Assembly: GCF_949628265.1 (NCBI RefSeq)
Contig: NC_088787.1
Span: 35,452,844-35,516,843, forward strand
From: Cloeon dipterum
Lineage: Eukaryota > Arthropoda > Insecta > Ephemeroptera > Baetidae
Length of the DNA: 64,000 bases
Direction of reading: 5' to 3'
The first letter of the stretch is position 1. The number at the start of each line of letters is the position of its first letter. Below the pieces are notes generated by a model. The model was not told the DNA's origin. It worked only from the letters and a program-made list of their open reading frames with translations, and made no database searches. Position numbers and translations under genes: made by a program. Shown here piece after piece: positions 730-22,594 of the stretch.

Positions 730-1002
730 CCAATTGGGTTTTGCTGCCGCAGCTGCCAGACACGTACGCCGCAACCTTAGAAAACAAGAAATCGCATTAC
801 ACGCCACCTGTCAATTTAAGGGGAGGCAAGATCAGGCAAAACGCAACCTCTGGCATCGCTTCTTTACCTCTTCCAAGTGCCGGTCAGCTGCCAGGATATA
901 ATGCGAGCTGCAGAGGTGCGTGATTCTCTCTCCCGTCTTATGTTATCCTGGCACTTTTATTGCTTGCTGTGTGCCACGCGGGTTGCGTAATATAATCAAT
1001 TG
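730..1002 (-). repeat. dispersed repeat R, short inverted copy
   Basis: Read on the minus strand, this matches both ends of the repeat at 26938-27657 (and 15266-16003). Shared blocks include a start resembling TTGCAACCCG..GGCACGCAG, the motif GCAATAAAAGTGCCAGGATA, and an end GGCAGCTGCGGC. About 300 bp of the middle of the longer copies is absent. Neither ORF across it looks like a real protein. Family unidentified. Confidence 0.7.
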
Positions 1003-1869: not shown

Positions 1870-4800
1870 ATGCCGAAACATTCAGTAAAAAAGAACAATT
1901 ATGTGGTGACACCCGAGGTAATCACGGAAAAACAGTTATAAAATTATCAAATTACACTCGATATCCAACAAAGAAAACACTTTCTATTGAAAAATATTAT
2001 AATTAAACGCGCGTTATCAATTTTCATGGCACTAACGACTTTTAAAATTTCAGCAAAGCATTTTGAAGGTTGAGAACAGCAAGAAACTGAAGCTGACGAA
2101 ACAAAGACTGCAAAAATTATGGGACAGCTGTCAGGACGAGCATGATCAGGAAGCCGAAAAAATTGTGGAGAAAATCAGGAAATACATCAAGCATGAAGAT
2201 CGGATGAAAAGCCTCAGTGAGTTAACAAAAAAAATCACAAATATTTTATATCAGTGAAAAATATACGGTTTATTTCAGGCCCTTCCATGCGGGACAAGGT
2301 TTTGCAAGAAATGTCTCGCGCCAAGTACCGAAAATTGTATGAAGAGAACTCGGAGGAGTTTGAAAAATACATGAAAGTTTTCCCGCTTCTGCTCAGCGAA
2401 GAAACTAAAGAGATCGAACTTATTGGTACGCCGTTAGTTTACCCTCTTGACACGAGGAACCTCTACTTGACCAAGGCAAGTCATTATCACAGCCGAGATA
2501 ATATTTTCAAATTCTAAATTGAATACCAAGTCCACTCTTCTGGCCGTTATAAAAAATATTATTCAATTAGATTTCATTATTTTTTAATTAACTTTGGAAA
2601 AAAGCGATCTATTTTCACGTTAGCTGAAAAAAGCGGCCGCTCTGATTGGCCGGCGGTGGTATACGTCATTGTTTGCCAACCGCAGAACTGATCAGAACGG
2701 ACCGCGGGAAAAAAGATCGCTTTTAGAAAGCGCTTTTAACTCATTAAAAGGATAATTATGTTTCTAAAGAGTGTTTTGTTGAAGTTTCTGAGCACACAAA
2801 TCGATTCCTAAGGGTCGAATTAGGTAAAATTGATATTTTTCTGACCAAAAAATCCAGCGTGACGTGCGATCTTTTTTCCCGCCAAAACAATATGAACGAA
2901 TATGGGAGAACTGCGCATGCGTAAGAGCTGGCTGGATCTGACAAAAAAGTCATTCGTACAGGTGGTCTCTCTGCGAGTGCTCAAACCAGCTCTGACGCAT
3001 GCGCAGCTCTCGCAAATGCGTTTATATTGTTTTGGCGGGAAAAAAGTTCGCACGTCACGCTGCACTTTTTGGTCGTGCAAAATATCTACTATACCTATTT
3101 CGACCCTCAGGAATCGATTGGTGTGCTCAGAAACCTCGTCAAAAACGGTCTTCAATCAAATTTATGAAATAAATATTGCATCACGTGGTGCAATTCATGC
3201 TCCCTGCTCAGTATCTCTTATTTAGCAACCCTGAGCAAGCTAAGAAGTTCTTTTACCACTCATAGGTAGTACGTCGAGCACTTTTTCTAACCAATCAGAG
3301 ACCACCAATGCGAAATCTTCCCTGTAAATTTCCCCTCCACCATCATGGGGAGTAAGGGGAAGAAAATAAGTAGCGAATTTATGCGTTGGCGGTCTTTGAT
3401 TAGCTGAAAATGTACTCGACCTGCCACATATAACAACTCCTTTAAAGTTGCTCAAAGCCACCACATAAAAGGGACTGTTTTTTATTTGTTTACTCAATTC
3501 TTGTCCTAATTGAATATAAATTCAACAGCGGTTTGAGTACCTGGCGCTCAACGCGCGCAACCTGCAAATTCTGGCGGTGAGCGGCGTGCAGACGGACGAA
3601 ACGATGGACGAGTCGGTGAAAGCCATGCTTAGCAAGATGGAAAACCTGGAGAAACTGCAGATCCAGAGCTACAGGATCAAGTACACGCACCTGAAGGAGC
3701 TGTGCAAAAAGCTGCCAAAGCTGCAGTACGTTGACGTGTGGATCGACTTCGACTGCCAAACCAGATTCGACGACGTGGACGGCTTCGTGGACAGTTTCTC
3801 GCGGCTGAAATTCTTCCTGTTCAACTCAAAGGGATTCTTCGCGGCCGACTGCGAGGATACCCTGACCCGGATGTGCGTACAGCACCTTCCGGGGCTGCAG
3901 GTGGTGCGGAAGTTCGCGGACAACAACGTCTACCACCTGGACGAGGACTTGGAGCTGCCCACAAATCCGACAGACCTGCGCCACCTTTGTGCTCGCCCCA
4001 GCTTGCGCATTCTGCATGAGACCTTTCCAAAGGTCACGCACCTCAGGGTGAATTTCTTCAACTTCATCGGCTCCTTGGAGGTGGAGAAGATTGAAATCAG
4101 GCCGCTGCTGCTGTTCGACAACATCGAGAGTCTATTTCTGGACAACGTGCCTGCCGTGGAAGTGGTCCAGCAATTCCTTCAGGAATACGGACCGAACCTT
4201 CTGGAACTGCGCATCCACGCCTGCGACAAGAGCGAGTTGGTGATTAATCCGAGAACCATCGCGGTCTCGTGCCCGAGACTTCAGAAACTCAGCCTCTTCA
4301 AGGTCATCATCGAGGAGCTGGGGACCAGACCAAAGAAAGTCGTTCAAGAGCAGGACAAACAGAAACCTTCCATCTTAGTTGCTGATGAGCAAGAGCCAAA
4401 AAAGGTGTTGCCGAAAATGCGGGCTTATGCATTGCCGAATGACTCGTTCCTGCACTTGAGGGAGTTGGCGTTCGAACCAGATGAGTAAGAATATTTTTTA
4501 GATAAAGTAGGTCTCACGCAGCAAGAAATTTTGGGTCACGTTGGCAGCCGCCGGTGTGAAAGAGAAACAATTTAACAGCGCAGGAGAAAAGAATTGTATT
4601 CCGGACTCTTCAGGCCGTTAAAGACCATCTTTGACGAAGTTTCTGAGCACACCAATCGATTCCTGAGGGTCGAATTAGGTATGAAGGATATTTTTCCCTT
4701 CAAAATGTCCAACGTGACGTGCGAACTTTTTCCCGCCAAAACAAAATGAACGTATTTGCGAGAAGTGCGCATGCGTCAGAGCTGGTTTGAGCACTTGCAG

Positions 4801-5632
4801 GGATACCACCTTTACGAATGACTTCTTTGGCAGATCCAGCCAGCTCTGACGCATGCGCATTCCTCGCATGTAGCTTCACATTGTTTTGGCGGGAAAAAGT
4901 TCACACGTCGCGCTGGACTATTTAGTCGGAAAAAATGTCCACATTACATAATTCGACCTTCAGGAATCGATTGGTGTGCTCAGAAAGTTCGTTAAAGACA
5001 GTCTTTAAGCCCTATATCGATCTTGAAACGTTTAAAATAATATTGTCAGACGCGCAAAAAAATTGAAAAATTCGTCTATAGAAAATTCGGTTAATTTTTT
5101 TTCATAAATTGGACGATTTAATCAGGGTTTTGATGTTCATACAAAAAATATTTAAAATATACCGACACTTTTCACTCAAAAAACCTTTTATCTATCTAAT
5201 TTCAGAAGCAGCAATGGGGCGCTGCTGTCGAGTGTGCTTTGTGCGCCGAAACTGGAGCGTTTCATGCTGAGTTTTCGTCGCGCCGAAAACCTCGACATGG
5301 AGGACCTGGAGCGCATCTCCGTCTGGGTCGAGGAGCAGCAAATCCTGACCAACCTGACTCATTTCCAGTTGGCCTCGCACCCTACCGTGCTGAATGCCGA
5401 ATTCTGCCGCGCCTTTAGCGATTTCACGAGAAACGCATCCGCGTTTTTGCCCAAATTGGCGCGTTTTGACGCGATGTTCCGTCTCTCCTGCGTCGACGTG
5501 CGTCATTTCATGGCCGAAGGAGAGGAGGACGTTGTGTGTACTGACCGCGACAGGCAGCTCACCGCGGAAAAATTCGCACAGTTCGGAGAGCATAAATACG
5601 TGCAATTCCTCAATGCGTACAAACGGAATTAG
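1870..5632 (+). CDS. leucine-rich-repeat protein, 596 aa
   Basis: Five exons (1870-1917, 2054-2216, 2279-2475, 3529-4484, 5206-5632) join into one open frame of 597 codons. The N-terminus is Lys/Glu-rich and helical (LTKQRLQKLWD). From exon 3 on there are irregular leucine-rich repeats (LRLLF-type strands such as LQILAVSGV, LEKLQIQSY, LQKLSLFKV), as in insect F-box/LRR-like orphan proteins, though no F-box is clear. The ATG at 1870 sits in a good context (ACCATGC) and is phase-compatible with exon 2. Intron 3 starts with AAG|GCAAGT, a GC donor. Introns 3 and 4 each carry a palindromic foldback element. A decayed paralogue lies at 20753-22594, and the C-terminal exons align (LLCAPKL, ASxLLPKL). 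Function unknown; such repeats usually bind proteins. Confidence 0.75.
2597..2735. repeat. small hairpin MITE in LRR intron
   Basis: The left end AAAAAGCGATCT..TTTTC and the right end GAAAAAAGATCGCTTTT are inverted complements. GC-rich inner segments around GCGGCCGCTCTGATTGG and GATCAGAACGGACCGCG also partly pair. It looks like a short non-autonomous DNA element within the third intron of the LRR gene. Confidence 0.5.
2766..3152. mobile_element. palindromic foldback element F, copy 1
   Basis: The left arm (CTGAGCACACAAATCGATTCCTAAGG...) is the inverted complement of the right arm (...AGGAATCGATTGGTGTGCTCAG), with GCATGCGC-containing inner arms and a short asymmetric centre. It lies in intron 3 of the LRR gene. 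Its ends are more diverged than in the other copies, so it is probably the oldest. No transposase ORF. Confidence 0.85.
4618..5008. mobile_element. palindromic foldback element F, copy 2
   Basis: About 391 bp, bounded by TTAA at 4618-4621 and 5005-5008. The arms are near-complementary over about 180 bp each (AGACCATCTTTGACGAAG at left, its complement at right). The centre is in the opposite orientation to copies 1, 3 and 5. It lies in intron 4 of the LRR gene. Confidence 0.9.
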
Positions 5633-5692
5633 AAGCTTGTTTTAATTAATATAAGATGCAAGAAAATTTGCAATTGTATATTGTGTGATATT

Positions 5693-5698
5693 AATAAA
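5693..5698 (+). promoter_or_regulatory. poly(A) signal of LRR gene
   Basis: AATAAA about 60 bp after the stop codon at 5632. Confidence 0.6.
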
Positions 5699-6390
5699 GT
5701 TTATTTTTAGTATTGATTGAAATAAACCTACAGCTTTATAATAAATCAGGCTTCAATAATCCTAGAACAATTAAATAAACGTGAAAGCCGCAGCTTTTTT
5801 CGATAAATTTTCTTGCTTTGTAAACGGTATTAATTCTTTTATTTAATATAACAACAGATTTTGTAATTTAACCCGCAACGATGTAAAACGATCAGTCGAA
5901 TAAAAACTGTTCAATATAAAGAAATTTTAATTAGGTTTTATTTTAGATGAATTATAATTTCCCAAAATTGAATATTTGTTGAACTCACCCTTTTTTTACC
6001 AGAATGCGCACGGTCTTGTCTTGTTTCTTGAATTCTGCCGTCATGCATGTGGGTTCACTTACGCCGAAAGAATCGAAGTAATTATTATTATTGATTATAA
6101 ACTTGATCTAATCAGCTGCCCACTTGTCACATTGCTGCTCTCATTGTCAGCTGCTGCTGCTGCTGGCTGGGCTGGAGGAGGAGGGGCGTGGCCGCTTCTA
6201 TGGTTGGTTACGTGCGGGACTGCGGGCCGCTAAAATTCCAAAATTTAGACAGCGCGCTCGTGAATTCTTTGGATACCAGTTTACCAGTTACCAGAGTCAG
6301 GCCCTGAGTATATCACTATCAGACAGGTGATCGCTTGAGATCTCACTGAAATCCGTAATTCTGTAGGTTTACCAATCCTTTTGGTTCGCG
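5699..6390. other. intergenic, RCBTB promoter region
   Basis: No coding exon supported. The last part lies just before the RCBTB-like start codon at 6391. A GCT-rich stretch near 6150-6180 encodes only low-complexity alanine/leucine. Confidence 0.4.
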
Positions 6391-7035
6391 ATGTCTAAAT
6401 TGCTAGTTAAGTGGGCCTACTTTGGCTATCAGAAGCAAGAGATTCGTACTGCAGTCGTATTCGGTAATATATAATCGAATAGTAGCGTAAATATCGTAAA
6501 TATCTGCCGCGTCATTACGAACGTGTAATTTTTTTCGTCTTTTTGTTTGGTTTTCTGGTTTCTAATAAGTTCAACACGGTTTGGGAAGGGTGAACTGATA
6601 TAAACATTGTTTATTTTATCATCTTCCTCATTTTCAGGCACAAATGGTGAAAATGTAATTTTTGTCCTCGAAAATGATGAAGTGCTTGCTTTTGGAAAAA
6701 ACCAAAATGGGTGTCTTGGAGCTGGCGTCGAAGGTGAAGTGAAAGTGCTAAAGCGCATTGAAAATTTGTGTGAGCGGAAAATTGAAGGTTTAAATCATGT
6801 GAGAAATATCTGTTGATATTTAATAATGAAAATCTGATATACGCATAGGGTTTGAGTGTACTTGCGATTGCATTTTTGCCATCTCAGGATCTGGTTCCGT
6901 TTTCTCTTGGGGAGAAAATAAATATGGACAGCTTGGATTAGGAACCGACGAACTCACTAAAGTGCCTACCAAAATTTCGGGTTCCCTTGAGCACAAAACG
7001 GTTGTCCAAGTGGCTTGTGGTTATTTTCATACCCT
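6391..7035 (+). pseudogene. RCBTB-like gene, orphaned 5' half
   Basis: Exon 1 (6391-6463) encodes MSKLLVKWAYFGYQ and ends exactly as in the intact paralogue. Exon 2 (6638-6787) gives GTNGENVIFVLENDEVLAFG. Exon 3 (from 6849) gives an RCC1 repeat with VFSWGENKYGQLGLGT. Similarity stops abruptly at 7035 inside the repeat (after VACGYFHT), and unrelated sequence follows. The missing continuation is found on the opposite strand at 12258, so the gene looks split by an inversion. Exons 2-3 and the flanking intron are nearly identical to 16053-16510, implying a recent copy. Without its BTB part it is unlikely to work as an RCBTB protein, though a short transcript could still be made. Confidence 0.8.
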
Positions 7036-8424
7036 CCCCATGTGCCAAAACCAAGCGTATCGACGTCGATTCTCCTCTACGCGCGCTACAATTCCACCGT
7101 TTTCGAACTTACTTTAAAGCCCTTAATTCGCTGAAAATCCAGTCAAATTTTGCTTCCAGCTGTCTAAGCTGATGTATTTTATCAGTTTTCGCGGTTTTCA
7201 TCCGGTATAAAGTCTAAAAAACCAGTGTCGAACTTTCGACGGTTTTACCTGTGGAATTCTGTCGAAAATTCTACATCCACTTGAATCATCACCAAACAGT
7301 CAGAAAAACGCCTAGTTTCGTGATTAAAAGCGTAGGGTGAACTGGATCGAACCTTTATTTCATTAAATCATTATAATTTTAGCGTATTTTTAATCAACTG
7401 TAACCGATTAATTGCATTGTAGCTCAAGCGGTGGCAGAAAGCGCGGTTTTTTTCGGTATCACAGCTGGAGCTGGCAGAGAGCCGCGCCCACTCTAGCAAA
7501 ACATAATTCAAGTAGCCGGCTCGCGCAATGTATATTTTTACGTGTTCCGTCCACCTGCTGACGGTCTCAGGTAAAGTCAGGCTACCCTGAGCCTGAGCAG
7601 CGTGGGAAGAGAGAGTTCTGCGTGTCTGTTGTGCGCCAGAGAGCATATGTGAGCGATTGAAGCTGTACACATTCACGTAAGTTACTTTGCTCGCGAAATG
7701 TAAACATTGCGGTCAAAACGAATTTTTGCCATTTTTTTACAGATCCTTCCTGATGTTCATGACGGATATGTGACAGGCGGACAACGTCAGACAGACATTT
7801 TGGTCTAAGCGGGCGCGAGATTCAGCGGCAGAAAAATTATTTAAGCGGAAGAAATCGGCCTCGGACGCCCTTCGAACCTTATCATTTATGTAAAATTTTT
7901 CAGAATTGATTATGATTTTTTCTCTAGTGATTATTACATTGGATTTCCATCTTTTTAATTTATTTTGACATTTTACAGGGTTGGGAAGCATCAGTTTTGA
8001 TTTGAGACCTGGGACATTGGAGAGTGGCCGGCGAGGATGACGTCGTGTTCGAAAACTTATAATTTATTTTCTTGCATATTATGGAGTTTTCATCTGATTC
8101 ATCATATTTGTCTTATTTTATAACTTCCAGTCGAATCATGTATTTTTCGCATTTCATTTTGCATTTCTGCTATTTAATATTGTTAACCTTATCGTAGTTA
8201 ATTTTTTCTGGAAGTTTTTAACTGACGCGTTCTTTTTAATCTTCTTCCTATTGTTCGTAATATATTTATGATGGCATTCATGCAGTGAAATTTTGTTTAC
8301 CTGCTGAGGTATCAAAATAAGCAGCATTTTAATTGGTTAATTTAATATTTAAGTTATTTAGAGCAAAAAACTTTACACGTTCAATCAATTCAAAATAATA
8401 TCTGATATAATAGATAGTGGTATT
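7036..8424. other. gene-free stretch beyond inversion breakpoint
   Basis: No supported exon. Around 7424-7445 a tRNA-like A-box (TAGCTCAAGCGGTGGCAGA) appears without a matching B-box, so no tRNA is called. Confidence 0.4.
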
Positions 8425-9640
8425 CCAAGTTTCGAAGCTCAGGAATAGGGGCGTTCTCAATTTTCGTTTGTTAAAAAAATCTCCGATGAACGAAATTTGT
8501 TAATTAAAGCTGCACTAACTCTTAACTACGTAGAGATATCGCACTAGAATTGTCACTGCCCAGCCTAGTTTTCGATCTTAAACAACTTTTACATTTGCAA
8601 ACACTTCGCAGGTCGAAGGTCAAGGTCACCTTTCGCAACCTTTTCTCGGAAATTCAAAATTTATGGTTTATATCTCCCTTAGATTTTTGTGAGGTTTAGG
8701 GCCTAAATGTAGTCCGTGAAATTCTGCACAAAGCTCACCAAGTTTCATAGTTGTAATGCCGACAGTTTTGCTGCAATTGGAATTTTAAAATTAAAAACCA
8801 GCTCGAGGCCGCTCGACCGCGCATGACTTAAGGCTGCGGGATCCCCTCTCATTCGTAGAGTATATTTTTTCGCGTGTCACCTGCTTAGACATATCAGGAG
8901 AGGCTAGGGTGGACCTATGAAGGTCGAAATCGACCTTCAGAGTATGTACCTGACGTGACTCTGACAAAAAATGTCAAAAATCGTTCAATTTTTCAAACTT
9001 GGAGCCTTTTAATAGGTTTTAGTCACTCTCAAATATAAAGCCAAAACTACTGAATGACAATTCTGAAGCCGTACCTTAAAATAATAGTGGTAGCCATTAA
9101 TCGTGACAAGATATTGAAAATGATTAAATTTTTAAATCTGTAATTTAAGAAAATAACCTACTGTTATGTACATACGAAGTTAAAATTGAGCAGATTAAGT
9201 GATGATAATTAACGATCTTAATCTTACAATGAAAACTTTATTACGTGGAATTGCAAAAAATTACATGTTTTCCAAAATTTTTATTTTTAAAAGTATAATA
9301 AATTTATGCATTTAATAACATTTCATTGTAAGAATGGGATTGTTTATTTTAAACACTTCATATTAACTTCGTATGTGTGTAAAAAAACAGGATGTCATTT
9401 CTTAAATTAAAGATAGTTTAACCTTTTTTAATCTCACGTCACGATTAATGGCTATCACTCTTATTTCAAGGTATGGTTTCAGGATTGTCATTCAGCAGTT
9501 TTGGCTTCATATTTGAGCTACAGAGCGGCAAAAACCTCTATTAAAAGACTCCAAGGTTGATAAAATTGAACGATTTTGACATTTTTTATTTCAGGGTCAC
9601 GTCAGGTACATACTCTGAAGGTCGAAAGAAATATATTTCC
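8425..9640. repeat. repeat H: inverted copies forming a giant hairpin
   Basis: 8425-9130 is a minus-orientation copy of the intronic repeat at 31556-32206. 9435-9640 is a partial plus-orientation copy. The arms extend inward: 8935-9285 and 9290-9635 are inverted complements (for example ACATACGAAGTTAA versus TTAACTTCGTATGT, and TCTTACAATGAAA versus TTTCATTGTAAGA), giving a palindrome of about 700 bp centred near 9287. No transposase frame seen. Likely a non-autonomous foldback DNA element. Confidence 0.7.
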
Positions 9641-10458
9641 TCTCTTGCAATTCATTCAACTTACGCTCAGCTCTCTCAGAGGTGCAGTCCAGTAATGAAA
9701 GGTGAAAAGCGGGGAAAACGAGCGAAAGCCTCCCTGCGCTCCCTTCCCCTCCCAACACGCTGCTGCGTTCTCTCCCAGATCGACTCGAAAAGAATATATG
9801 GTTAATTATTTCGGCAGCAGGAATCTGGAAACAACACCGTGCATTCTGGCAAAAGGGGTGAAAACGCAACTAAAATTTCATAAAACCAAATTAAAAATAA
9901 CTTCAGTTTTTAATTGACTGATTGTTAATTTTGATGACATCATTTTCCTTCACAAGCCAATTTATAAAAATTTTAAAGCTAACATTAAATATTTATGAAA
10001 AATGCGGCTGATGTTACAACATTTTATCTCGACTGCGATTATGACAGAATAATGACCCAAGATTTGGTGAAGCGCAGGGGAAATTCCTCGAGTCAAGAGG
10101 GATAGTTTACGGCTTGCCAATAAGTCCGACATCCTTTGTTTCTTCGCTGAGCAGAAGCGGGAACTTTCAAATACTATTTTAGCATAAAAGGAGCTGAAAT
10201 AAACCATGTAAGCCGACAACACGCCAAAATTTCTGATTAAAAATCTTTAAAATGATTCGAAAGTTCAAATTGTCTGGATTGTTTAAATTTTTAAAGTAGG
10301 AGATAAATCTAGTGCAAAATTTTAATTAGTAAATATGCGAGAAAATTCATAGAAACAAGTTTTTTGAAACTGGAATTAGCAACACAATTGCCTTACAGAA
10401 AAAATATTTTGAAAACATGCATAGTGCTACTAATCAATGAAAAACTTGTCCACCAGTT
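9641..10458. other. intergenic, 3' of RCBTB half-gene
   Basis: No gene recognised. It contains the presumed 3' flank of the minus-strand RCBTB half-gene. Confidence 0.4.
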
Positions 10459-12258
10459 TTACTTTTGATTAGCCGCCACACGGAAAACTTCCAAGACGAT
10501 TTTTCTCTTGCAGTCAGCAGACTCAAAATTGTTCAAGACATCAACCAAATGCTCCATGCAAAATTCAAAGCAGAACTCACACAGGTCCTACATCCAAAAT
10601 TAATTAATATTAAAATTTAGAATAATTTTTCTAGATCTATCCCACCTTGGCTCCGAGCAAAATTGCCTTCTCATAAACAGTAGCAGCGATTTGCACTGTC
10701 AGGCCAGATTTGAGAATCTTTTCACACTCGTCCATCAGATCTGCCACCTGAAATAAGCGGGCTGTGGCATACACGTCTGCAATAGAAATATCATTGAAAA
10801 TTATTCTCTAAATAAATGCGAAATTAATTTTATACCAAGAGCAAGTTCAGGCGTGAAATCAACTTGATCAGTGTAGAAGTACTTGAGGAACGCGTAGAAA
10901 GATTCATAGCTGTGTTCCTTGACTTCATAGCTGAGACGATTCTCAGCGATCCGCACCCTGAAAAGAAAATCAAATGATTAAGATAATAAAATTACACCTT
11001 AATACTTTTTGCGACTGTCATTCCAAACTCTAAGGAACAAATTCTTGAACACCTCGCTTCCAAATATCAACATATTTTTGTGCACGTGGATTTTCTTCTT
11101 CTCGACAATGAATACAAAGTCAGCAGTTTCCTAAAATAAGAAAAAATATTAAGGAAATTGTCAATGAGAGTGAATAGAAATCTCACAGGATCGTCAAACG
11201 CCTTTCTTACTCGCTCAGTTAGCGAGACTTTCTTCATGCTCTGATTTTTTGCAATTTTCAATTGAAATTGTTGGTAGGTCACTTGAGGAGAGGCAACAGC
11301 GTAAACTCCGTCCAATGACGAGAAGGAAGTGAGCAATGGTTTCAAAACAATTTGACCTTTAATTAGTTTAAAGTGATAAGTTCGGCAATCAATGCATTTT
11401 ATTTAAATTCATACCATTGCAACTGCCCCAGATGTAAACCTCTTTCTTTTTGGTGATTGCAGTGCACGGGTGGCTCTCGTATAGAGTGGCAGCAATTTCT
11501 CTAACCCTGTGTGAAAAGATAATTTACGCTTAAACAAATATCCCAGCTTTTTGTCTCACCTTCCCATCTCTGTTGAGATAATGGTTGGGCTCTCGACAAA
11601 CTCGGTAGTCCCATTTCCCAACTGGCCTTCGCTGTTTTCTCCCCATGAGTAAATTTTTCCGTCGTCAGATAAAGCGAGAGTGAAAAAGGGTCCACAAACG
11701 ATTAGGGAAATCACGACTCCTTCCAGGCCGATCACCTTGCTGGGACTATGTTCCTTGTATGTAGTTGGAGGAGAGCCAAACATGCATTTGGAGTCGTATC
11801 CCCAAGCGCAAATCTTTTAAGATAATAACAAATAAGCTTTTAGGAAAATACTAACTAAATTTTGTCTACAAGAAAATTATAAATTTGCAAATGAACATGG
11901 CCATTAATTCAAATGGAAGCAAAATTTTAATTCAGAAATAGTTTAAATAAAACTGCATTTATAATATATATCCTAGTAAAATCATAATGAGTATTTTCAA
12001 CGAATTCGCAATTGCAATGGTTGTCCTGATTGTAGGAGCGCAAAAGAAGAGACTAATTGGCATGCAACTGAGGTTACGATTGTCCCGTCCAGCAGTCCAC
12101 CAATCTTTCGTGGAAGCGATTGGTCGTCCGTGGTTCCCAAACCTAATTCTCCGTTAGTGTTTTGACCGAAAGCATATACCTGATTAATGGAAACAGAATA
12201 AATTGGATTATCTACAAAAATAATTTAAATTTCACCTCTCCCTCTGACGTCAAAGCTA
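10459..12258 (-). pseudogene. RCBTB-like gene, orphaned 3' half (RCC1-BTB)
   Basis: This aligns exon by exon with exons 4-11 of the intact gene at 17713-20140. It carries RCC1 repeats (VYAFGQNTNGELGLGT, IYSWGENSEGQLGNGT, VYIWGSCNG), a linker, a BTB fold (ETADFVFIV...IHVHKN and YAFLKYFYTDQVDF) and a BACK-like tail ending VAANQK with the stop at 10459-10461. Most exons remain open with usable splice sites. It starts abruptly at 12258 in the tail of exon 3, without the N-terminal exons or the original promoter. It is therefore 5'-truncated by rearrangement rather than decayed; if transcribed from a new promoter it could give a shortened BTB protein. Confidence 0.8.
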
Positions 12259-12701
12259 GCTAAGCGCCGTTTGGAAAGGAAGTCTCGATAAAAGTGAGTA
12301 AATTCAAAGAATATCGATTTCAAATCACTGTGGAAACTCTTCAGCAGTTTATTTTTTTGTTCAGTGGAGGTTTCAAATTTTTACGGTAAATATTTTGATG
12401 TCAATTAATTTGAGTTATTCAATCTGCCGTTTTGAGATTAAAATTGTTGAATTTTGTCGGAATTCACAGAACGCAGCAAGCCGCGAATGCCTGGAATTTC
12501 AAATATTTTGAGGATGCGGACGGTCAATGCATAAATCCGTTTGATTTAGATAATATTTTTCGCATTCCCTACATTTTTGGCATTATTTGTCGCGGCGGTC
12601 AAATCGCTTACTAATTCTTTCATTCGTTTGTATTTTATTTTGTACAATTCCAAAAATTTAAATTTTAATCATTATATTGTCTTACATTTAATTTTTTAGA
12701 A
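12259..12701. other. right flank of inversion, possible exon
   Basis: A short open frame at about 12435-12612 (WNFKYFEDADGQC) has no recognised homology. A pyrimidine-rich TTTTTTAG acceptor-like site precedes the ATG at 12702, so a noncoding leader exon may lie here. Confidence 0.3.
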
Positions 12702-12950
12702 ATGAAGAGCAGAGCCGCGAACGACTTCGAAGTCCAGGCTGCCGTGGGAAAAATGTTTGTGCCGAATGACTCAGAGGAGGAATTCACGTACGGGGATGAG
12801 CCACAACCTTTAACTGACAATGAAGTCGACTCATTGGAGTTTGATGAATACGGACAGCCTGAGCACGATGATCTTTGGGAAGACCAAGTAGTGCCTTCGT
12901 CGATATTAGAACATTATTATTCCTCATCAGACTGCTTCTCGGCAGCCTAA
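12702..12950 (+). CDS. hypothetical small acidic protein, 82 aa
   Basis: An ATG-started frame directly follows an acceptor-like TTTTTTAG and ends at 12950. An AATAAA signal follows at 13098-13103. The protein is strongly acidic (SEEEFTYGDEPQPLTDNEVD, then FDEYGQPEHDDLWED) with an aromatic/serine tail. No family recognised. The combination of acceptor, skewed composition and poly(A) signal makes it more than a random ORF, but nothing shows its role. Confidence 0.4.
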   Translation: MKSRAANDFEVQAAVGKMFVPNDSEEEFTYGDEPQPLTDNEVDSLEFDEYGQPEHDDLWEDQVVPSSILEHYYSSSDCFSAA

Positions 12951-15265
12951 CAGCGCGACTCCTGTGCTATTTTTACATTTTTTTTGTGTTTTTGACGATG
13001 CAAACCAACCAGCTTCCAGCACTTTGAATTAAAAAAAAAGAAGAAGAAAATAGTCACTATGTGGCTCTGTATCTGGAGAACAGTTCGGCAAAATATCAAT
13101 AAAAAATGTTGCACTGAATTTAATTTGATTTTTAAGTTCTCTATTCCCCGAAAACAAAAGATATGAAGACATCAAAATTTGCCGATCACTAACAGAATGA
13201 AAATATTGAAGATAAAAGGATGTTTGACCTGCTCGATCACTTTGTTGATAAGTGCGTTTTTTGGTGCAGGCGTTTATTTGGCCTCCTTCATTACGCGAAC
13301 GACGGCCGCTTCGAGCTCGCTCTTGCGGTCCACCTCGACCTGACCTCGACAGCCGTCCTTGTTTTTTTGTGCCGCTCGCTCACGCTCTCGACTCGAAAAG
13401 CAACCGGGTGCAGCCTTACCCTGTAAGTGCGTTCGTCCAACAACGATGAGCCACGTGAGAAAAGACGAGCTCATTGACAGCGCTTTTTTGACAAAGACCA
13501 ACACGGGGAAATGACAGCCGCCCTGATAATGATTTACATTAGTTTAGAAAAGCGGAATTAGTGCGCCGCAGATACATTTTTTCACTTGGCTAACATGCAC
13601 TTTCCCAGCCGACTTATTTTTTCTTGAAAATAACTAAACGCGATGCAGAGGGATAAAAAGAGTGGGCCCGAGAGATAGGCTATTTTTCCGGGGCACGAAC
13701 GATTTCACCGCTCCTAAGTCGAGAAATTAAAACTTCTGTCCAAAAAAGGGTCGAAATGGAGGAATAAAAATACTTTGGTACAAAATTTAATTTAAATTAA
13801 CTTCCGCTGCAAATTCACACTAAATCCTGCTACTGTGCTTTCTTTTGACGTACTGAAGACCAAAATCAGTCCAGCCATTCGCCGCAGAAAAGTGGGGAAA
13901 TATTTTATATTATATTTATAAAAACCTTTTCACGATTCCACGCCGATTGGCTTAACCGATATAAGTTTTCAGCACACGTCACCGAATAAATATTAAGTGA
14001 AGAATGCACAGTACCAGGATTTATTCTGATATTGCAGAGCAAAGTGCTTTTAAATTGAAAGTATATGGTGGCGCCATCGGTTGGTGGCTTCACAAAATAT
14101 TTCGCGGTTTTTAGTGCATAAAAACGCACCCGCATACAATTAAACCCGCAACCCACCAGAATTGACAAAAAACTAAACCAACGCGCCTCGCGGTGCAGTT
14201 AACTGCGGGTTTAAACCCAACCCGCACTATTACACCTGTGCAGGGCTCTACTGCTTAATCTCTGACGGGCCTTTATTTGGCTAAAAGGTGGTCAAATTTT
14301 ATATTCCCGAAATATCTGTGTCATCGTGAGTTTGAATCGCATATCTTTGAGATAATATCATTCCTGACACATTCCTCTTATTGAATAACAACAAATTCCT
14401 TTGAAATCGTTAAAATCCTACCTGATATTCCAAATATTCTGGCGCGACGAAAATGAACAGGTTCCAACATGTTGCTTGTTGACAAACGACACAAAAGTAA
14501 ACTGCGCAGTTGAGTTTTTTAGCACCGCAGCGCGGCGACCAATCAGATGCGCCAGATCTCTACAGAGAGATGCTCATTGGTCGCGACGACCGATCTTTCG
14601 CTGCAGTGTAAGGAAAGGAGTAGTGGAGTATCAGCTCTGATGCCTTTCTTGCCACCTAGTATCAACTCTCCTTTCCTTACACTGTGTTTCTTGTCCGAGG
14701 AACGCACAGCAATTTTATTCTCGAGTCTGGGTTTTCGAGTCACGGAGTCGCAGTTACGCCATATTGGAATTAATTTGAGCGGGAAATTTATTATATGCAA
14801 TGTTTTCCCCTATGTGACGTCACCTGGGAGACGAGCTATGCCCGACAGACCTTCAAAGGTGCGCATTGCGCATCCTCTCCTGTTTGTTGTGCTGAGGTCG
14901 GTGGTAAGAGCTTTTCGAGAGGCGCATACAAACTACAAAACAGCTGTTGCGCGGGAAATGTTACAGTTAAGATGGGTGTTTTTTTTTGTAAACAAACAAA
15001 AGAAGGCAACAAATTTTGAATCTCATTTCTCATTAAGAATGTAGAAAAAGGGATGAGAACACGCATCTAGAAATGTGGCCAAATTAAAGATTTTTCGCCG
15101 AAATGTGTAAAACGGCAAATGATATCTCGATCCGGATCAAAACTGTTAATAAATAATAACTTCTCTGAACAAGAATGCATCTGCTGTCTAACCGAATTTG
15201 ACTGCTGTAAAGTTCCAAATGGATTTGAAACGTGTTTTTACAAAAATAAGAGTATGAGATGATAT
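12951..15265. other. long gene-free stretch
   Basis: No coding exon supported; ORFs on both strands are shadows of GC-rich or low-complexity DNA. It includes a 3' poly(A) signal at 13098, a dispersed motif GCGATGCAGAGGGAT at about 13640 that recurs at about 24355, and a local inverted-repeat cluster at 14531-14683. Confidence 0.45.
14602..14683. repeat. perfect 17-bp inverted repeat (stem-loop)
   Basis: CAGTGTAAGGAAAGGAG and its complement CTCCTTTCCTTACACTG flank about 46 bp. Just upstream, GCGACCAAT and ATTGGTCGC (about 14537 and 14575) form a second inverted pair. Could be a small MITE or a symmetric CCAAT-box promoter. Confidence 0.55.
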
Positions 15266-16003
15266 TTATGCAACCCGAGTTACACAAAGTGAACCATATA
15301 AGTGCCAGGATAGCATAAGAAGGGAGAGGGAATGAGATGCTTCGGTCGGCCTATTTGGCTCGAAGTGATGGTTGGCTTTGGCTGACCATTCAGCCTCCTG
15401 ACGTCTGAATAGCGAAGGCATTGTGATCGAGCCGTGAACGTGAAGGAGGAAGATGCAAAGACCAAAGATAAAAAATGCCGAGAGTGGAAAATTTTGGAGT
15501 GGGGACGCGCCAGCATCAACGATTGCCCCCACCTATAATTTCCCCGCTCTTGGTGTCTCCTACATTTACCCTGAGTTTTGAGAGAGAGGGAGAGGAGATA
15601 GACCAATGAGGAGCCTCGATTTCCGACAGGCGCGCTGGCGAAGTGCGGCAGAGTCTCCTTATATTCACCCTTTCCCATAAATACTTTAAAATTGGCGGGC
15701 CAGCTGCCAGGAGACAATGCGAGCTGCGGAGGTTGGGTTTTGCCTGATCTTGCTTCTCCTTATACCTTGACAGGTGGCGTGCTAGGTGGTTTCCCCCTAT
15801 TGCTTTCTGTGCTTGCATGGCAGCTGCGGCAACCCAGCACACTACTATCACGTGTTAATCTTCCTCTGCTGCTGCAGCTGCAGCATGCGCCGATCGAGGC
15901 TGTTATTTTTTCCAAATTGGACGTTGGAAGAATATTAACGATGAAGTTGGTATTCTTCAAAGGTCTTGGAAGGCTCGCAAGGTCAAGAAAGACCACACAA
16001 CGT
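15266..16003 (+). repeat. dispersed repeat R, long copy
   Basis: Matches 26938-27657 in the same orientation along its length. Shared blocks include GTGCCAGGATAGCATAA, AGTGGGGA-GCGCCAGCATCAACGA, CTCTTGGTGTCTCCTACATT and CAAGGTCAAGAAAGACCA near the end. Similarity ends right where the short RCBTB copy begins. ORFs across it are not convincing. Confidence 0.7.
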
Positions 16004-16052
16004 AAGCTTCAAAAAATTGCCTATTTAATTTTTTTTTGTGCAAAAGACCTTT

Positions 16053-16618
16053 AATTTGGGAAGGGCGAACATTGATATAAACATTGTTTATGTTATCATC
16101 TTCCTCATTTTCAGGCACAAATGGTGAAAATGTAATTTTTGTCCTCGAAAATGATGAAGTGCTTGCTTTTGGAAAAAACCAAAATGGGTGTCTTGGAGCT
16201 GGCGTTGAAGGTGAAGTGAAAGTGCTAAAGCGCATTGAAAATTTGTGTGAGCGGAAAATTGAAGGTATAAATCATGTAAGAAATATCTGTTGATATTTAA
16301 TAATGAAAATCTGATATACGCATAGGGTTTGAGTGTACTTGCGATTGCATTTTTGCCATCTCAGGATCTGGTTCCGTTTTCTCTTGGGGAGAAAATAAAT
16401 ATGGACAGCTTGGATTAGGAACCGACGAACTCACTAAAGTGCCTACCAAAATTTCGGGTTCCCTTGAGCACAAAACGGTTGTCCAAGTGGCTTGTGGTTA
16501 TTTTCATACCCTAGCTTTGACGTCAGAGGGAGAGGTGAAATTTAAATTATTTTTGTAGATAATCCAATTTATTCTGTTTCCATAAATCAGGTATATGCTT
16601 TCGGTCAAAACACTAATA
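16053..16618 (+). pseudogene. short RCBTB-like copy spanning the ancestral junction
   Basis: About 450 bp are almost identical to 6588-7035 (exon 2, intron, exon 3). Unlike that copy it continues unbroken through CATACCCTAGCTTTGACGTC, the next intron and the start of exon 4 (VYAFGQNTN), which matches the minus-strand half-gene at 12258-12165. It lacks exon 1 and everything after exon 4's first codons, so it is a fragment. Confidence 0.8.
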
Positions 16619-16747
16619 AGCATCTCAGTAGCCAAAGCTACCAACCATCTGACTCTCGTCTCGATCTTCTTTGAGCAGCTGAAGGGGTCAGGGGGTGCAT
16701 ACATTCATCCCCTTTCATCCTCTTTTTGCAATTTTGATAATAATAAA

Positions 16748-17152
16748 AGCGACTACCGTTCCAGGCGCCGCGCTCACCGTCGCATTTTTAAAGAAGCATG
16801 GAAACTTAGGGGTGTAAAGTTATCACCCCTAAACCCTTTAGCTACTCAGAAGAGGTTGAGACGAGTCCAACAACATGTAATTTTTGCTTTTTCTATGCTT
16901 AGAACCAGAGATATAGAGTTGCAACGTTTCGAAACACGCGAAATAAAGTCAAATTTTTTTCCAATTTTCGTGATTTTTGCAAATCCAATTCAGGTTTTTT
17001 TCAGGAAAAAAAACAAACTATCCCTCGTTAGACTCGCCTTGACCTGTTGTGAACAACAGATGGGTGTTTGTTCTCCACCCTTAAGTTTCCATACAGCTTT
17101 AAAAATGTGACCTTGAGGGGCACCAGGGACCAGGAACGGTGGTTGGGCTTTG
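16748..17152. repeat. imperfect foldback repeat
   Basis: CTACCGTTCCAGG...ATTTTTAAAG...ATGGAAACTTAGGGGTG at left is mirrored by CACCCTTAAGTTTCCAT...CTTTAAAAAT...CCAGGAACGGTGG at right, with inner GAGACGAGTC/GACTCGCCTT pairing. This foldback of about 400 bp directly follows the truncated RCBTB copy. The ORF across it is probably not real. Confidence 0.6.
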
Positions 17153-17712
17153 CCTTGACCATTTTTGACCAACTAAATGGTTTTTGACGCAGATATTTAT
17201 TTAATTTAATTAATAAGAGCATCTCCCAAAATCATGATGAACGCATTTTATTGTCTTGATTTCAAATTAGAAATTCTCCGAATATACATATCATAATTTG
17301 AGCACTGTGAAATATTGTTGGTATAAATTTGAAAAAATTGTTTCAATTCCAAAACTCAAATTAATAAAATGTAGAACAAAATTCTAAGAAAATATTAGTG
17401 ACACAAATTAACAACTTCACTTTTTTTTAATTTTGGTCAAGCAGAAATGTACTATTTTCGAACAATATTAAAACAGTAGTAGTGTAGCAAATAAGCGTAA
17501 AGAATTCCTGCTACCGTGTAAAGAGAGAGGCTCAAATATGTGTTGCTTTTACTTTAAAATTTTCCAGTATCAAGTTCTTTTGTAGCTCAATTTTTAAATA
17601 AAATAGGATAAAAGCGAAAACAGAGAATTCGTAGAAACAAATTTTATCGAACTAGCATTACAATTTTAAATACCTGCATGTGCAACTGATCAGTGAAAAC
17701 TAATTCCATGTT
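17153..17712. other. intergenic
   Basis: AT-rich, no gene seen. It holds the 3' flank of the intact RCBTB-like gene. Confidence 0.4.
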
Positions 17713-20140
17713 TTACTTCTTATTAGCCGCCCAACTGAAAACCTCGAAGAAGACTTCTCTCTTGCTGTCAGCAGTCCCAAAATTGTCCACGACATCAATC
17801 AAGTGCCCCTTGCAAAACTTAAAGCAGAACTCACACAGGTCCTATTAAACCAAAAATTAAACAATATTAAAATCGAGAATAATTTTTAGACATTAATCTG
17901 ACCTTAGCTCCAAACAAATGTGCCTTCTCGTAAACAGCAGCAACGTTTTGCACTGTCATACCTGATTTAAGAATCTTTTCGCACTCGTCCATCAGATCAG
18001 TCACCTGATAGAAGTGGGCTAAGGCGTACACGTCTGTAAAATTGATTTTAAAAATTATTCTTAATATCGGACGAAATTTATTTTATACCAAGAGCGAGTT
18101 CATGCGTAAAATCGACTTCATCCGTGTAGAAGTATTTGAGGAACGCGTAGAAAGCATCATAGCTGTGATCCTCGACGATCTGCTCCCTGAAAAATTCAAA
18201 GATAAAACAAGATAAAATTAAAAGAGTCCTTTATACTTTGGGCAACTGTCCTTCCAATCTCCAAGGAACAGTTTCTTGAACAAATCGCTGCCGATAGTCA
18301 AAAGGTTCTTGTGGACGTGAATTTTCTTCCCCTCGACAATGAATGCAAAGTCAGCAGTTTCCTAAAATAAGAAAAAAGATAAAGGAAATTTTCTATTAGC
18401 GAGGAAAGAAATTTCACAGGATTGTCAAACGCTTTTCGTAGACGCTCATTCACCAAGCCTTTCCTCTTCCTCTCATCTGTTGTAATTTTCAATTGAAAAC
18501 GTTGGTAGCTCACTGGAGGATAGAACACAGTAAAAACTTCATCCAAAGACAAGAAGGAAGTGAGCATTGGTTTCTTGGCAAGTTGACCTAAAATTAAATT
18601 TAATTATGTTAGTGACGTAATGTATGGTACTATTCATACCATTGCAACTGCCCCAAATGTACACCTGGTGATTTTCCGTGATTGCAACGCACGGGTGGCT
18701 CTCGTATAGAGAGGCAGCAATTTCTGTAACCCTGTTCGTACATTAATTGCGCTAAAACAAATGATCCTTCCAGCTTTTAGTCTCACCTTCCCATCTCTGA
18801 TGATATAATGGTTGGTATGCTGACGCCATCGGTAGTCCCAGTTCCCAACTGACCTTTCTTGTTTACTCCCCACGAGTAAATCTTGCCGTCGTCCGACAAA
18901 GCGAGAGTGAAATCTCGTCCACTGACGATTTTGGAAATCAAGACTCCTTCCAGGTTGAGCACGTTGCTGGGACTACATGCCTGGTGAACTGTGTGGCACA
19001 ATCCTATTCTTCCGTTAGAGTTGTCACCCCAAGCGAAAATCTGTAATTATTATTAATAAAAATACAAGCTTGAAGGAAAATACAAAGAGTGCATGAATTT
19101 GAAATTGCAAGAAAATAATAAAATGCAAAGAATTGAAAGCAATAATACATCATTTCTGAACCATGATGATCCAAGTACTTGGATTGGTATAAGAAATCGT
19201 AGCATTCAAAATATTACTTTCAACAACCTCGCAAAAGCGATGGATTACAGAAATAATAAATACCTCTCCAGAATGTAAGAGCGCTAAAGAGGAGAAATTG
19301 TGGCAAGCAACTGAGGTTACAATTGTCCCATCCAGCAGTCCGTCAACCTTTCGTGGAAACGATTGGTCGTAATTGGTCCCCAAACCTAATTCGCCCTCCT
19401 TGTTTCGACCGAAAGCGTAAACCTGATTTACAGCAATAGAATCAAATGGATTATTTACAAAAAAGTATTATAATTTTATTTACCTCTCCCTCCGAGGTCA
19501 GAGCTAGTGAATGATAATTGCCGCAAGCAACTTGGACAACCCTTTTGTGCTTTAGAGAGCCTAAAATTTTGGTGGGCACTTTGGTGTATTCAGTGGTTCC
19601 TAATCCAAGCTGTCCAAATCCATTTTCTCCCCAGGAGAATACGGGACCAGATCCAGTAATGGCGAAAATGCAGATTTTGCCGTCATCATCGCCAGCACAT
19701 GCAAATCCTGCATCATTCAGTGTTTGCATATAGTTATAGATATCCAGGAAAACATTGTTGACATGTCAATTTTACCTTCAATTCTTTGTCCACGCAAATT
19801 CTTAACGGGCGCGAGCTCTTTATTCACTTCACCATCGACGCCAGCTCCAAGACACCCTTTTTGGTTTTTTCCGAAGGCAAGCACCTCATCATTTTCGAGA
19901 ACAATAATCACATTTTCTCCGTTTGTGCCTGAAAATTAAACAGAAAAATATTTAAATCCCTGCTATCCCTTTCAATCAAATTTAAATAAGAAATCCAAAG
20001 AAAGATGCCGAAAACGTGAACATTAACTACTTTTATATAATAACTAAATAGTGTTAGATTTTTTTACCGAATACGATCGCAGTGCGAATCTCTCGCGTCT
20101 GATAACCAAAATTGGCCCACTTCACTAGCAATTTGGACAT
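17713..20140 (-). CDS. RCC1 and BTB domain protein (RCBTB-like), 535 aa
   Basis: Eleven exons join into one open frame (coding lengths 73,153,224,159,254,92,170,125,98,131,129; total 1608 bp): 20068-20140, 19776-19928, 19484-19707, 19264-19422, 18787-19040, 18640-18731, 18418-18587, 18237-18361, 18089-18186, 17903-18033, 17713-17841. Exons 2-6 encode RCC1 propeller repeats (VLAFGKNQKGCLGAG, VFSWGENGFGQLGLGT, VYAFGRNKEGELGLGT, IYSWGVNKKGQLGTGT, VYIWGSCNG). Exons 8-9 encode a BTB domain (ADFAFIVEGKKIHVHKN, YAFLKYFYTDEVDF). Exons 10-11 form a BACK-like helical tail. Length and order match vertebrate RCBTB1/2 (about 530-550 aa), which are probable CUL3 adaptors. It is the only whole member of the family here; its partial relatives lie at 74, 6391, 10459 and 16053. 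Confidence 0.9.
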
Positions 20141-20752
20141 GGTGAACCAAGGATGATCGAAGATTTTGACCAAGACAAAATTAAATACGCGATGAAAATG
20201 AAAATTCTGTTTTCGTCGGCTTCGCGAATGGGGCGTGGCTGCTACTTGGCGCCCTTGGCGATACTACTTCTTGTCTTCTTCCTCTTTCTGTTTCTGGTCC
20301 TTCCCGCTAATTTTACGTTCGCTGACTGCGCTGATCGCCGCAACAACCGCGCGGCGCGCAGCCATCTTTTTGAATGTACGTCCTGCAGCTCACTCAACTG
20401 CATAAATAAAAAATTATCTAAGCCTGTCAAAAAAAAAAATAATTTTTCTGGCCTCTTCCTTTAGTAATTCGTGTGTTTTTGAATCAGGTAACACGAGAAT
20501 TCATTCATTTTTAGTGCCCTCAACGGCGGATAAAGGATGAATCGAATTCAAAGAATTTCGGCTTTGGTCTGAAGTGGCGTCAATGATGCCGAATGTGATT
20601 GTTTTCGTTCATGTAAATTATAGTAAATCGGCATCAGGCCTCAGGCCGCCAAATTCTGGCTAATTTTGTTTTCTTTCTCTGTTTTAAGGTCACTTATTAG
20701 TTCTCAGGGGATAATTTGATTTGCGTTATTTGCTTTTTAGACGGAATTCGTG
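20141..20752. promoter_or_regulatory. divergent intergenic region
   Basis: The shared upstream region of the minus-strand RCBTB-like gene and the plus-strand LRR copy. A TTGCTTTTTAG acceptor-like site at 20731-20740 suggests a noncoding leader exon for the LRR copy. No TATA box is evident. Confidence 0.35.
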
Positions 20753-22594
20753 ATGGAAAAAGACGACAAAGAAGCTCGATTCGTTGAGCTCACGAAGGTG
20801 AGGCTGGAGGCCCTGAGGAGGAGGCAGAGTCTATCTAGAGAAACTTGCTGTCCACTACGTTGCCCACAATTTGGACCTTTTCTCCGAGCAAAACAAACTT
20901 GAAATTCTACGTAAGTTTGATTGGAACATTTTAGAAAAATTAATTTGCATTTTTATTTCATTCATTAAAGCCATTCAAGTGCGGGAGAAGGTCTTGCAAA
21001 GAGTGCTGCAGTTTGGCTGCTGTGGTTCCAACGGCAACCCAGAAATGCTACTAAAGGTCATGAAGGCACTGCCCCGCAGCTGCTGAGTCCAAGCACCAGA
21101 AAGGTTGATTAGAAGGGCATCTTCAGCTTTCGCCCCGAAAATTCTGCATTGAAACAAGTATTTTCCGTATTTTCTAATCATTTTTTATTGAAATTAATTC
21201 AAACTGATTTATTAAATAATGTAGGTTTTCCACTGGATTGCTTTTCTGGCTCCCAATGTGGAGGAATTGTCCTTGTCTAGGCCCAGAGCTGGAGTCAGGA
21301 TCCTTGACATGCAGTTGCTGCTTCCGTCACTCAGCCAAATGAAGAAGCTTAGAAAACCTGCTGCTCAATGTGACCGAGCCTAGCTTTTCTGACCTGAGCA
21401 AGCTGTGCGGCTCTTTGCCCAATCTGCAAGTGGCCAGTGTCGGCGCCCTTTGGCACGTGGAGCATGATTTGAGGGATGGCAGCGAGCACAAGAGAAACTT
21501 GCAGAATCTCAGGGTGCTCGAGGTCAACAACCTGTGGCGTTCGCAACACCATGATTTTTTCGCCACTGTGGCTCCCCATCTTGATTACACCCTCGCTCAG
21601 AACTGGGAATATTTACCACTCTCTTCCGACGAGAAGGAGATGCCGCCATTCCTGAAGAGAAGGTTCATTACCCTGGGAGAACGGGAGATGCTGCATGAAG
21701 GGCTCGAACTAGACTGCCTCTCAAGTATCCAAACATCACCCATCTCGTGGTAATTTTTACACCTTTTTAGTATGGACAAGCTTATTCTTATACCGCGGAA
21801 ATTCATTTTTTTTTCAGTCCTATAGGATTGTATCAAGTATATTATTTTTTTCAGATTGAGGACGCTTACTTCGAAGAGCAATGCATCAAAACGGTGCTGC
21901 ATTTCAAAAAAGGTTGAGGCCTTGATCTTCCACGGCGTGAGTTGCTTGGACATTGTGGAGCGCATCTTGGCCGCCTTTGGCCACCAACTTCACTCTTTGG
22001 CCATCTTGAGCACTCATCCGAGCGTAAATCTGGCTCTTGGAAAGATTTCCTTGCTCTGCCCCAAATTGGAAAGGCTGCACCTGGTAAATGCCTCCGTGCT
22101 GGACACCACAAAGGAAGTTTTTCCGGAGTTGACCGAGTTGATTTGGATCAACAGGTGTGAATCCAGCCATTTAAATTATTCTTATCTCATTATTTTTTTG
22201 TTATAGTAAGGAGATTCGGTCAGCATCCAGCCTGTTGTGTGCCCCTAAACTGCGGAAGTTGATGATGAAAGGTGTCTTCAGCTTGTCTGATCTAGAAAAA
22301 TGCACCGAGATGATTGAAAAGGGCGACGTTCTGAAGGAGTTGCGTGCCTTTAGCGTGATTCTCGATCACAGGAACAACCCTATGTTCTATGAACAGCAAT
22401 TCAACGCGGCCAATCGCATGATGAAGACCGCATCCACCCTTCTGCCCAAACTGGTCAATTTTCAGTTCGGCCAAGAGATTGATTCCAGCCATGAGTCTGA
22501 TGAGGAAGTAGATGTGGCCTTTTTGCACTTTCGCCTGGACACTTGCTACAAACTGGTGAAGGAGTATAACAAACACAATGGAGTCTGTCCATGA
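20753..22594 (+). pseudogene. decayed leucine-rich-repeat gene
   Basis: Paralogue of the LRR gene at 1870-5632. The N-terminus reads VRLEALRRRQSLEKLAVHY once a tandem TCTA duplication near 20835 is discounted. Further frame breaks lie near 21080, 21352, 21720 and 21905 (an A-run), and there is an in-frame stop in the segment before 21150. Between the breaks the sequence is clearly LRR-like (LSDLEKCTEMIEKG, LEALIFHG-type, LCPKLERLHLVNAS). The last exon (about 22208-22594) is fully open and matches exon 5 of the other gene. AATAAA follows at 22641-22646. With five or so disruptions it is probably a pseudogene, although assembly indels should be considered because several breaks are small. Confidence 0.7.

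What the first reader, a model, noticed from the sequence alone, without database searches (positions are those of the whole stretch)
6391..16618. RCBTB gene split by an inversion of about 5.2 kb, with an unbroken witness copy
The plus-strand 5' half stops at 7035 (after CATACCCT) and the minus-strand 3' half starts at 12258 (TAGCTTTGACG). These are exactly the two sides of a sequence that runs unbroken in the short copy at 16500-16520 (CATACCCTAGCTTTGACGTC). An inversion of about 7036-12258 of an ancestral plus-strand gene explains position and orientation of both halves. The near-identity of 6588-7035 and 16053-16510 suggests that the witness copy is young.
Basis: seen in the sequence. Interest (0 to 1): 0.75.

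Follow-up and report, generated by a model that had tools for sequence, protein, structure and literature searches.

The report
Transposon-split, partly inverted RCBTB gene copy
One copy of a large gene family was hit by a jumping gene and its back part was then flipped over, while a short nearby duplicate still shows the unbroken sequence; it is an unusually legible but ordinary example of how surplus gene copies die.

Summary
The front of an RCC1-BTB gene copy (A; plus strand, 6391-7035) and its remainder (minus strand, 12259-10406) are the two sides of one sequence that runs unbroken in a fragment at 16055-16616 (98.5% and 99% identical; next-best genomic match 78%). Twenty-eight paralogues and neighbour copy B are unbroken there too.

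The interpretation needs revision. Base 7036 is the exact end of a DNA transposon (T1) whose complete copies have inverted ends CCCCATGTGCC...GGCACATGGGG; two of three show a 2-bp target duplication. Here both gene halves carry CT at the break and the fragment carries it once, as an empty site would. The T1 copy stops at 9625, at the centre of a hairpin-like palindrome; its other end is absent from the window.

Best reading: T1 jumped into A; later about 2.6 kb (9626-12259) was inverted and T1's far half was lost. A is a pseudogene: a splice donor GT kept by 29 of 29 compared paralogues is CC in A.

Ordinary in kind: transposon insertion plus micro-inversion in a clustered gene family. Order of events is inferred; assembly error cannot be excluded without reads.

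The parts
6391..7035 (+). 5' part of RCBTB copy A: exon 1 (ATG at 6391), exon 2 (from about 6638) and the front of exon 3; ends with one copy of the target dinucleotide CT (7034-7035)
   Evidence: RCC1 repeat in 6830-7036, Pfam PF00415 E 1.3e-18
7036..9625 (+). truncated copy of transposon T1: one terminus at 7036 (CCCCATGTGCC), palindromic core around 8930-9625, cut off at 9625; the far end is absent
   Evidence: other copies start at query base 1 or 2; alignment to L011 and L012 ends at 9625; no far end elsewhere in the window
9626..12259 (-). most likely inverted segment (the inversion is inferred): 3' part of A plus about 0.8 kb of its former downstream flank
   Evidence: inference
10406..12259 (-). 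3' part of RCBTB copy A (rest of exon 3, RCC1 repeats, BTB domain); begins with the second CT (12259-12258 on the minus strand)
   Evidence: RCC1 E 2e-16; BTB PF00651 E 2.3e-18 for exons read by eye
12019..12024 (-). approximate place of the lost splice donor: CC in A where 29 of 29 compared paralogues have GT
   Evidence: coordinates read
16055..16616 (+). unbroken fragment ('witness'): intron 1 end to early next exon of a close copy of A, no transposon, single CT; an empty site
16617..17144 (+). dispersed repeat T2 that abuts the right edge of the fragment
17663..20150 (-). neighbouring RCBTB copy B, uninterrupted at the site where A is split

Best explanation
A member of a clustered RCC1-BTB gene family (copy A, ancestrally plus strand) was first partly duplicated (the fragment at 16055-16616). 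Then a cut-and-paste DNA transposon of family T1 inserted into the third coding exon of A, duplicating the target dinucleotide CT. Later, breaks at or near the hairpin centre of the palindromic transposon (9625), at its far end beside CT, and downstream of the gene (9626/12260) were rejoined with the 2.6-kb piece 9626-12259 flipped and the far half of the transposon lost. The result is a dead gene whose front and back lie on opposite strands. Shown: the sequence relations, the exact T1 terminus, the shared CT, the truncation at 9625, the uninterrupted site in 30 comparison sequences, the lost splice donor. Inferred: the order of events, transposase or hairpin breakage as the source of the breaks, and end-joining as the repair.
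For: Fragment bridges the halves. 28 paralogues, B and the fragment, 30 of 30 aligned, have no insertion at the junction. T1 copies elsewhere start exactly at the base that follows the gene (three copies besides the window's own, from query base 1, 1 and 2). L011 has both ends CCCCATGTGCC/GGCACATGGGG flanked by TA and TA; L012 has CTCCATGTGCC/GGCACATGGGG flanked by AG and AG; here CT/CT. The window copy ends at 9625 against both L011 and L012, within GAAGGTCGA.TCGACCTTC, while their far ends do not occur in the window. A multi-copy transposase-like ORF lies between the two T1 ends on C4. A lacks a donor GT that 29 of 29 compared paralogues keep.
Against: The y-side CT could be chance (about 1 in 16): the bases next to it are not T1 sequence, so the second T1 end is presumed lost, not seen. 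The third complete T1 copy (C4) has no clear 2-bp duplication (GC or TG on the left, TG on the right with one G fewer). The nearest other T1 copy is only 94% identical over 458 bases and 86-88% over longer stretches, although the insertion should be younger than the roughly 1% divergence of the fragment; this needs a source copy that moved or is absent from this assembly. The old adjacency 9626/12260 cannot be checked: both flanks are single copy apart from an 86-base, 83% match. No reads or second haplotype were available.
Confidence: 0.7

Rival explanations
1. One reading: one inversion of 7036-12259. T1, already truncated, lay downstream of intact A with its terminus facing 12260; a break at that terminus and a clean break inside A were rejoined inverted.
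For: Accounts for position and orientation of both halves with one rearrangement; transposon ends are sites where transposase can cut (recalled).
Against: Leaves the matching CT on both halves as a coincidence and needs a separate event for the truncation at 9625.
Confidence: 0.14
2. Assembly error: the contig was misjoined in a palindrome-rich, highly duplicated region.
For: About 30 related copies on C2, most within 35.1-35.5 Mb, and a palindrome of about 700 bases at 8930-9625 make this hard to assemble. No reads could be inspected.
Against: The junction 7035/7036 falls exactly on a transposon terminus, and A shows independent decay (lost donor), which a misjoin would not create. The search of the genome showed no second, uninverted copy of the locus.
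Confidence: 0.08
3. One-step alternative (aberrant) transposition: ends of two T1 copies attacked exon 3 together and inverted the intervening DNA.
For: Such reactions produce inversions with a transposon end at the junction and a split target duplication (passages of PMC8225341 and PMC2775673).
Against: Transposon ends are then expected at both new junctions; the 12259/12260 junction has none, and 12261-13200 is single copy.
Confidence: 0.05
4. Inversion by recombination between two inverted T1 copies flanking the segment, as described for Galileo.
For: T1 is palindrome-rich and present at one end.
Against: This needs a T1 copy at each breakpoint; only one T1 end exists in the window.
Confidence: 0.03

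Closest known systems
Galileo transposon inversions of Drosophila buzzatii (PMC2775673; passages seen)
   Same: A DNA transposon with long inverted repeats at a natural inversion junction; target duplications used to reconstruct the event.
   Different: Those inversions carry a transposon copy at both breakpoints with exchanged target duplications and arose by ectopic recombination. Here there is one truncated copy at one side, and the inversion is about 2.6 kb.
Ac/fAc alternative-transposition inversions at maize p1/p2 (PMC8225341; passages seen)
   Same: Inversion with a transposon terminus at the junction and matching target duplications.
   Different: There both junctions end in Ac or fAc termini with 8-bp duplications; here only one junction has a terminus and the duplication is 2 bp.
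CMCT DNA transposons (EnSpm/CACTA, Mirage, Chapaev, Transib and relatives; PMC12730594, passages seen)
   Same: Short target duplications (the paper gives 2-5 bp) and a large transposase; the L013 ORF has a CDFC (C2C-type) motif read by eye.
   Different: The paper gives CA...TG termini in most cases; T1 ends in CCCCATG...CATGGGG. The ORF had no Pfam match at E 0.1 and no PDB sequence match at E 1.
Ordinary pseudogenes in tandem multigene families
   Same: One copy of many broken by a transposon and rearranged, without visible rescue.
   Different: Rarely is the empty site preserved 9 kb away in a 562-base fragment (statement from general knowledge).

Membership tests
RCC1-BTB (RCBTB) gene family | RCC1 repeats | tested here: met
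   PF00415 in 6830-7036 (E 1.3e-18), 11559-11816 minus (2e-16) and 16307-16555 (1.1e-19)
RCC1-BTB (RCBTB) gene family | BTB/POZ domain in the C-terminal part | tested here: met
   PF00651, E 2.3e-18, for exons of A's 3' part translated by eye and typed; the single frame 11070-11402 alone gave no Pfam match
Cut-and-paste DNA transposon (T1) | terminal inverted repeats | tested here: met
   L011 CCCCATGTGCC/GGCACATGGGG, L012 CTCCATGTGCC/GGCACATGGGG; the C4 copy has both ends. The window copy has one end only
Cut-and-paste DNA transposon (T1) | fixed-length target-site duplication | tested here: met
   2 bp in two of three complete copies (TA, AG); unclear in the third. In the window CT/CT against single CT in the fragment
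Cut-and-paste DNA transposon (T1) | transposase | tested here: inconclusive
   626-aa ORF between the T1 ends on C4; 26 protein matches in the genome, itself included; no Pfam or PDB match
CMCT superfamily | CA...TG termini (most members) | tested here: not met
   T1 termini are CCCCATG...CATGGGG
CMCT superfamily | DDE with C2C and H(3-4)H motifs | tested here: inconclusive
   CDFC seen by eye in the ORF; no alignment to known transposases was possible
Inversion by ectopic recombination between transposon copies | inverted transposon copies at both breakpoints | tested here: not met
   only one T1 terminus in the window
Alternative-transposition inversion | transposon termini at both new junctions with split target duplication | tested here: not met
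   no T1 sequence at 12260 and beyond
Inversion, as opposed to assembly error | long reads across the junctions | not testable with these tools
   no reads or second haplotype held

The most novel reading that the evidence does not exclude
T1 and perhaps other palindromic transposons with 2-bp target duplications in this genome act as local rearrangement agents: a stalled excision that cuts one transposon end, together with breakage at the element's own hairpin, flips the neighbouring DNA in one step and destroys half of the element. The locus would then be a one-element micro-inversion, distinct from two-copy ectopic recombination and from alternative transposition.
Probability: 0.25. Interest if true: 0.5.

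Novelty: new member of a known kind. Interest (0 to 1): 0.3.

Why it matters
It shows, within 10 kb of one assembly, the stages by which a surplus gene copy dies: fragment duplication, transposon insertion, micro-inversion, loss of a splice site. Because the empty site survives next door, insertion point and target duplication can be read directly. For annotation, the two parts should not be called as two genes. If one-element inversions by palindromic transposons prove common, they would be an overlooked source of small inversions in gene clusters.

Tried and rejected
Simple inversion without a transposon: rejected as incomplete after one search showed that 7036 is a transposon terminus. Staggered-break inversion, in which the fragment would be the duplicated end: rejected because such duplications lie in inverted orientation at the two ends of the inversion, whereas the fragment has A's 5' part in direct orientation and lies about 3.8 kb beyond 12259. 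Fragment as a processed retrocopy: rejected because it contains introns. The one-ended T1 copy at C2:1.96 Mb as the lost half of the window's element: rejected, since it matches only about 500 bases of the left end, not up to the 9625 equivalent. A far T1 end elsewhere in the window: none found. Trees of the two halves to prove independently that they are one gene: not decisive. The first regular expression, for a deletion in exon 3 shared by A and the fragment, gave spurious matches and is not used; the statement rests on the rows displayed. Classification of the T1 transposase by Pfam and PDB sequence: no match. Paper search for RCC1-BTB expansions in insects: 31 papers with at least 4 of 5 terms, 10 listed; judging from that listing alone, none seemed to be about such a cluster, and none was opened. 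No structure prediction was run.

Full report
What was claimed.

The observation. It is correct. 6580-7035 matches 16055-16512 at 98.5% (5 mismatches and 2 gap columns in 458) and 12259-12154 on the minus strand matches 16511-16616 at 99.06% (1 mismatch in 106). In the 190-Mb genome the next-best match to the fragment is 78% identical, so the fragment is a copy of A and not of another family member. In the rows displayed, fragment and A also share a short deletion in exon 3 that the other paralogues shown lack (four others, six).

The gene family. The window lies at C2:35,452,844-35,516,843. DNA searches with the fragment and with the 3' part gave 39 and 52 matches, most of them in clusters on C2 at 35.1-35.5 Mb and 4.1 Mb. 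I fetched 28 of these copies and compared them with A, with the neighbour B and with the fragment. Set aside were a 3' fragment at 35,435,093, the matches at 4,104,130 and 4,105,446, and the weak matches elsewhere. RCC1 repeats and a BTB domain are recognised by Pfam.

The break point. In 30 of 30 aligned sequences (28 paralogues, B, fragment) the coding sequence runs on across the point where A is split. A alone is split there.

Why 7036 matters. A genome search with 7036-8400 found 12 matches. Besides the window itself, three begin at query base 1, 1 and 2: C2:35998135-35999519, C2:36427339-36428373 and C4:28793483-28793940. The flanks of these copies differ completely, so 7036 is the end of a mobile element (T1). 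L011 holds a complete copy (367-5920) with ends CCCCATGTGCC and GGCACATGGGG flanked by TA on both sides. L012 holds a second one (ends CTCCATGTGCC and GGCACATGGGG) flanked by AG on both sides. T1 thus makes 2-bp target duplications in these two copies. The third complete copy, on C4, has no clear duplication. In the window the gene's front ends with CT directly before CCCCATG, its back begins with CT, and the fragment has CT once: the pattern of a T1 insertion, with the fragment as empty site. The y-side CT taken alone could arise by chance about once in sixteen.

Where T1 ends. Aligned to L011 and to L012, the window copy runs from 7036 (7034 for L012, which includes the CT/AG) to 9625 and stops. 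The rest of T1, including its other terminus, is not found in the window. The stop lies at the centre of a short palindrome (GAAGGTCGA.TCGACCTTC) inside a longer one: 8930-9625 pairs with itself at 76% over 736 columns, and the corresponding core of L011 at 87% over 1,724 columns. 9600-10450 is single copy apart from an 86-base, 83% match, and 12261-13200 is single copy.

Reconstruction. Putting 9626-12259 back on the other strand gives front, CT, T1 (truncated), CT, back, on one strand: a gene with a transposon in exon 3. This explains all three junctions with two events, insertion and then inversion with loss of the far half of T1. I prefer the first, at 0.7. Which breaks started the inversion is inference: a transposase cut at the far T1 end and breakage of the hairpin are plausible sources.

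Results that fit less well. The closest other T1 sequence is 94% identical over 458 bases and 86-88% over longer stretches, although the insertion must be younger than the roughly 1% divergence between A and the fragment, unless gene conversion has kept those alike. A cut-and-paste source that moved away would explain it; I cannot show it. The trees of the two halves do not settle their common origin: the 3' half places A beside g22, g23 and g24 with support 98/97, the 5' half joins A with the fragment at 100/100 but leaves them unplaced, and the AU test rejects neither A plus fragment with g22-g24 (p 0.25) nor with B (p 0.31) for the 5' half, nor A with B (p 0.24) for the 3' half. The fragment, not the tree, carries that argument.

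State of A. A splice donor in the 3' part reads CC in A where 29 of 29 compared paralogues (28 and B) have GT. The donor after exon 2 reads GTTTAA in A, but GTATAA in the fragment and in four of four other paralogues. A is best regarded as a pseudogene.

The fragment. It keeps introns, so it is a DNA copy. Its left edge lies in intron 1. Its right edge abuts a dispersed repeat (T2) at 16614-16617; in the seven rows displayed other copies of T2 continue to the left with sequence unlike the fragment, so this edge looks like a join into an existing repeat. How the fragment got there is not resolved.

T1's likely helper. Between the two T1 ends on C4 (28784622 and 28793940) lies a 626-aa open frame with 26 protein matches in the genome, itself included. 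It has no Pfam match and no PDB sequence match. It looks to me like a CMC-type transposase, but that is recalled, and T1's termini do not fit the CA...TG rule given in passages of PMC12730594.

Comparison. Galileo inversions carry a transposon at each breakpoint (PMC2775673, passages), and maize alternative-transposition inversions have termini at both junctions (PMC8225341, passages). Neither is met here. The case is a transposon insertion followed by a micro-inversion: known in kind, low to moderate interest.

Noticed in passing
L018/L039, C2:35,336,000-35,340,200 (paralogue g18): A second RCBTB copy carries an independent 4,011-bp insertion in the same exon, 115 bases upstream of the A break, with ends CCCGCCCAGAAAT.../...ATTTCTGGGCGGG and a 2-bp TA duplication: a different transposon, also with a 2-bp target duplication.
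   Followed up: partly
window 38072-40000 and 51117-53512, minus strand: Two neighbouring genes or remnants with SID-1 dsRNA channel domains (PF13965; E 1.1e-21 and 4.8e-29 for the first, 4.3e-34 and 8.9e-35 for the second).
   Followed up: no
window 48433-49074 and 50362-50805, plus strand: Two tandem ORFs with a PARP catalytic domain match (E 3.1e-10; 7.2e-9).
   Followed up: no
window 3520-4488 and 21343-22594, plus strand: Open frames that look like leucine-rich-repeat genes beside RCBTB copies. For 3520-4485 the LRR matches in Pfam are below the curated cut-offs; 21343-22594 was not tested. An 86-base piece at 10084-10169 resembles 2372-2459, upstream of the first.
   Followed up: no
window 12709-12950, plus strand: Small acidic ORF next to the 12259/12260 junction, no Pfam match, single copy.
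   Followed up: no
window about 2763-3155, 4618-5008, 39297-39689, 47367-47748, 62518-62916, 63782-63998: Family of palindromic dispersed repeats in direct and inverted copies, possibly short non-autonomous transposons.
   Followed up: no
window 31560-32196: A palindromic repeat related at 70-73% to the T1 core.
   Followed up: no
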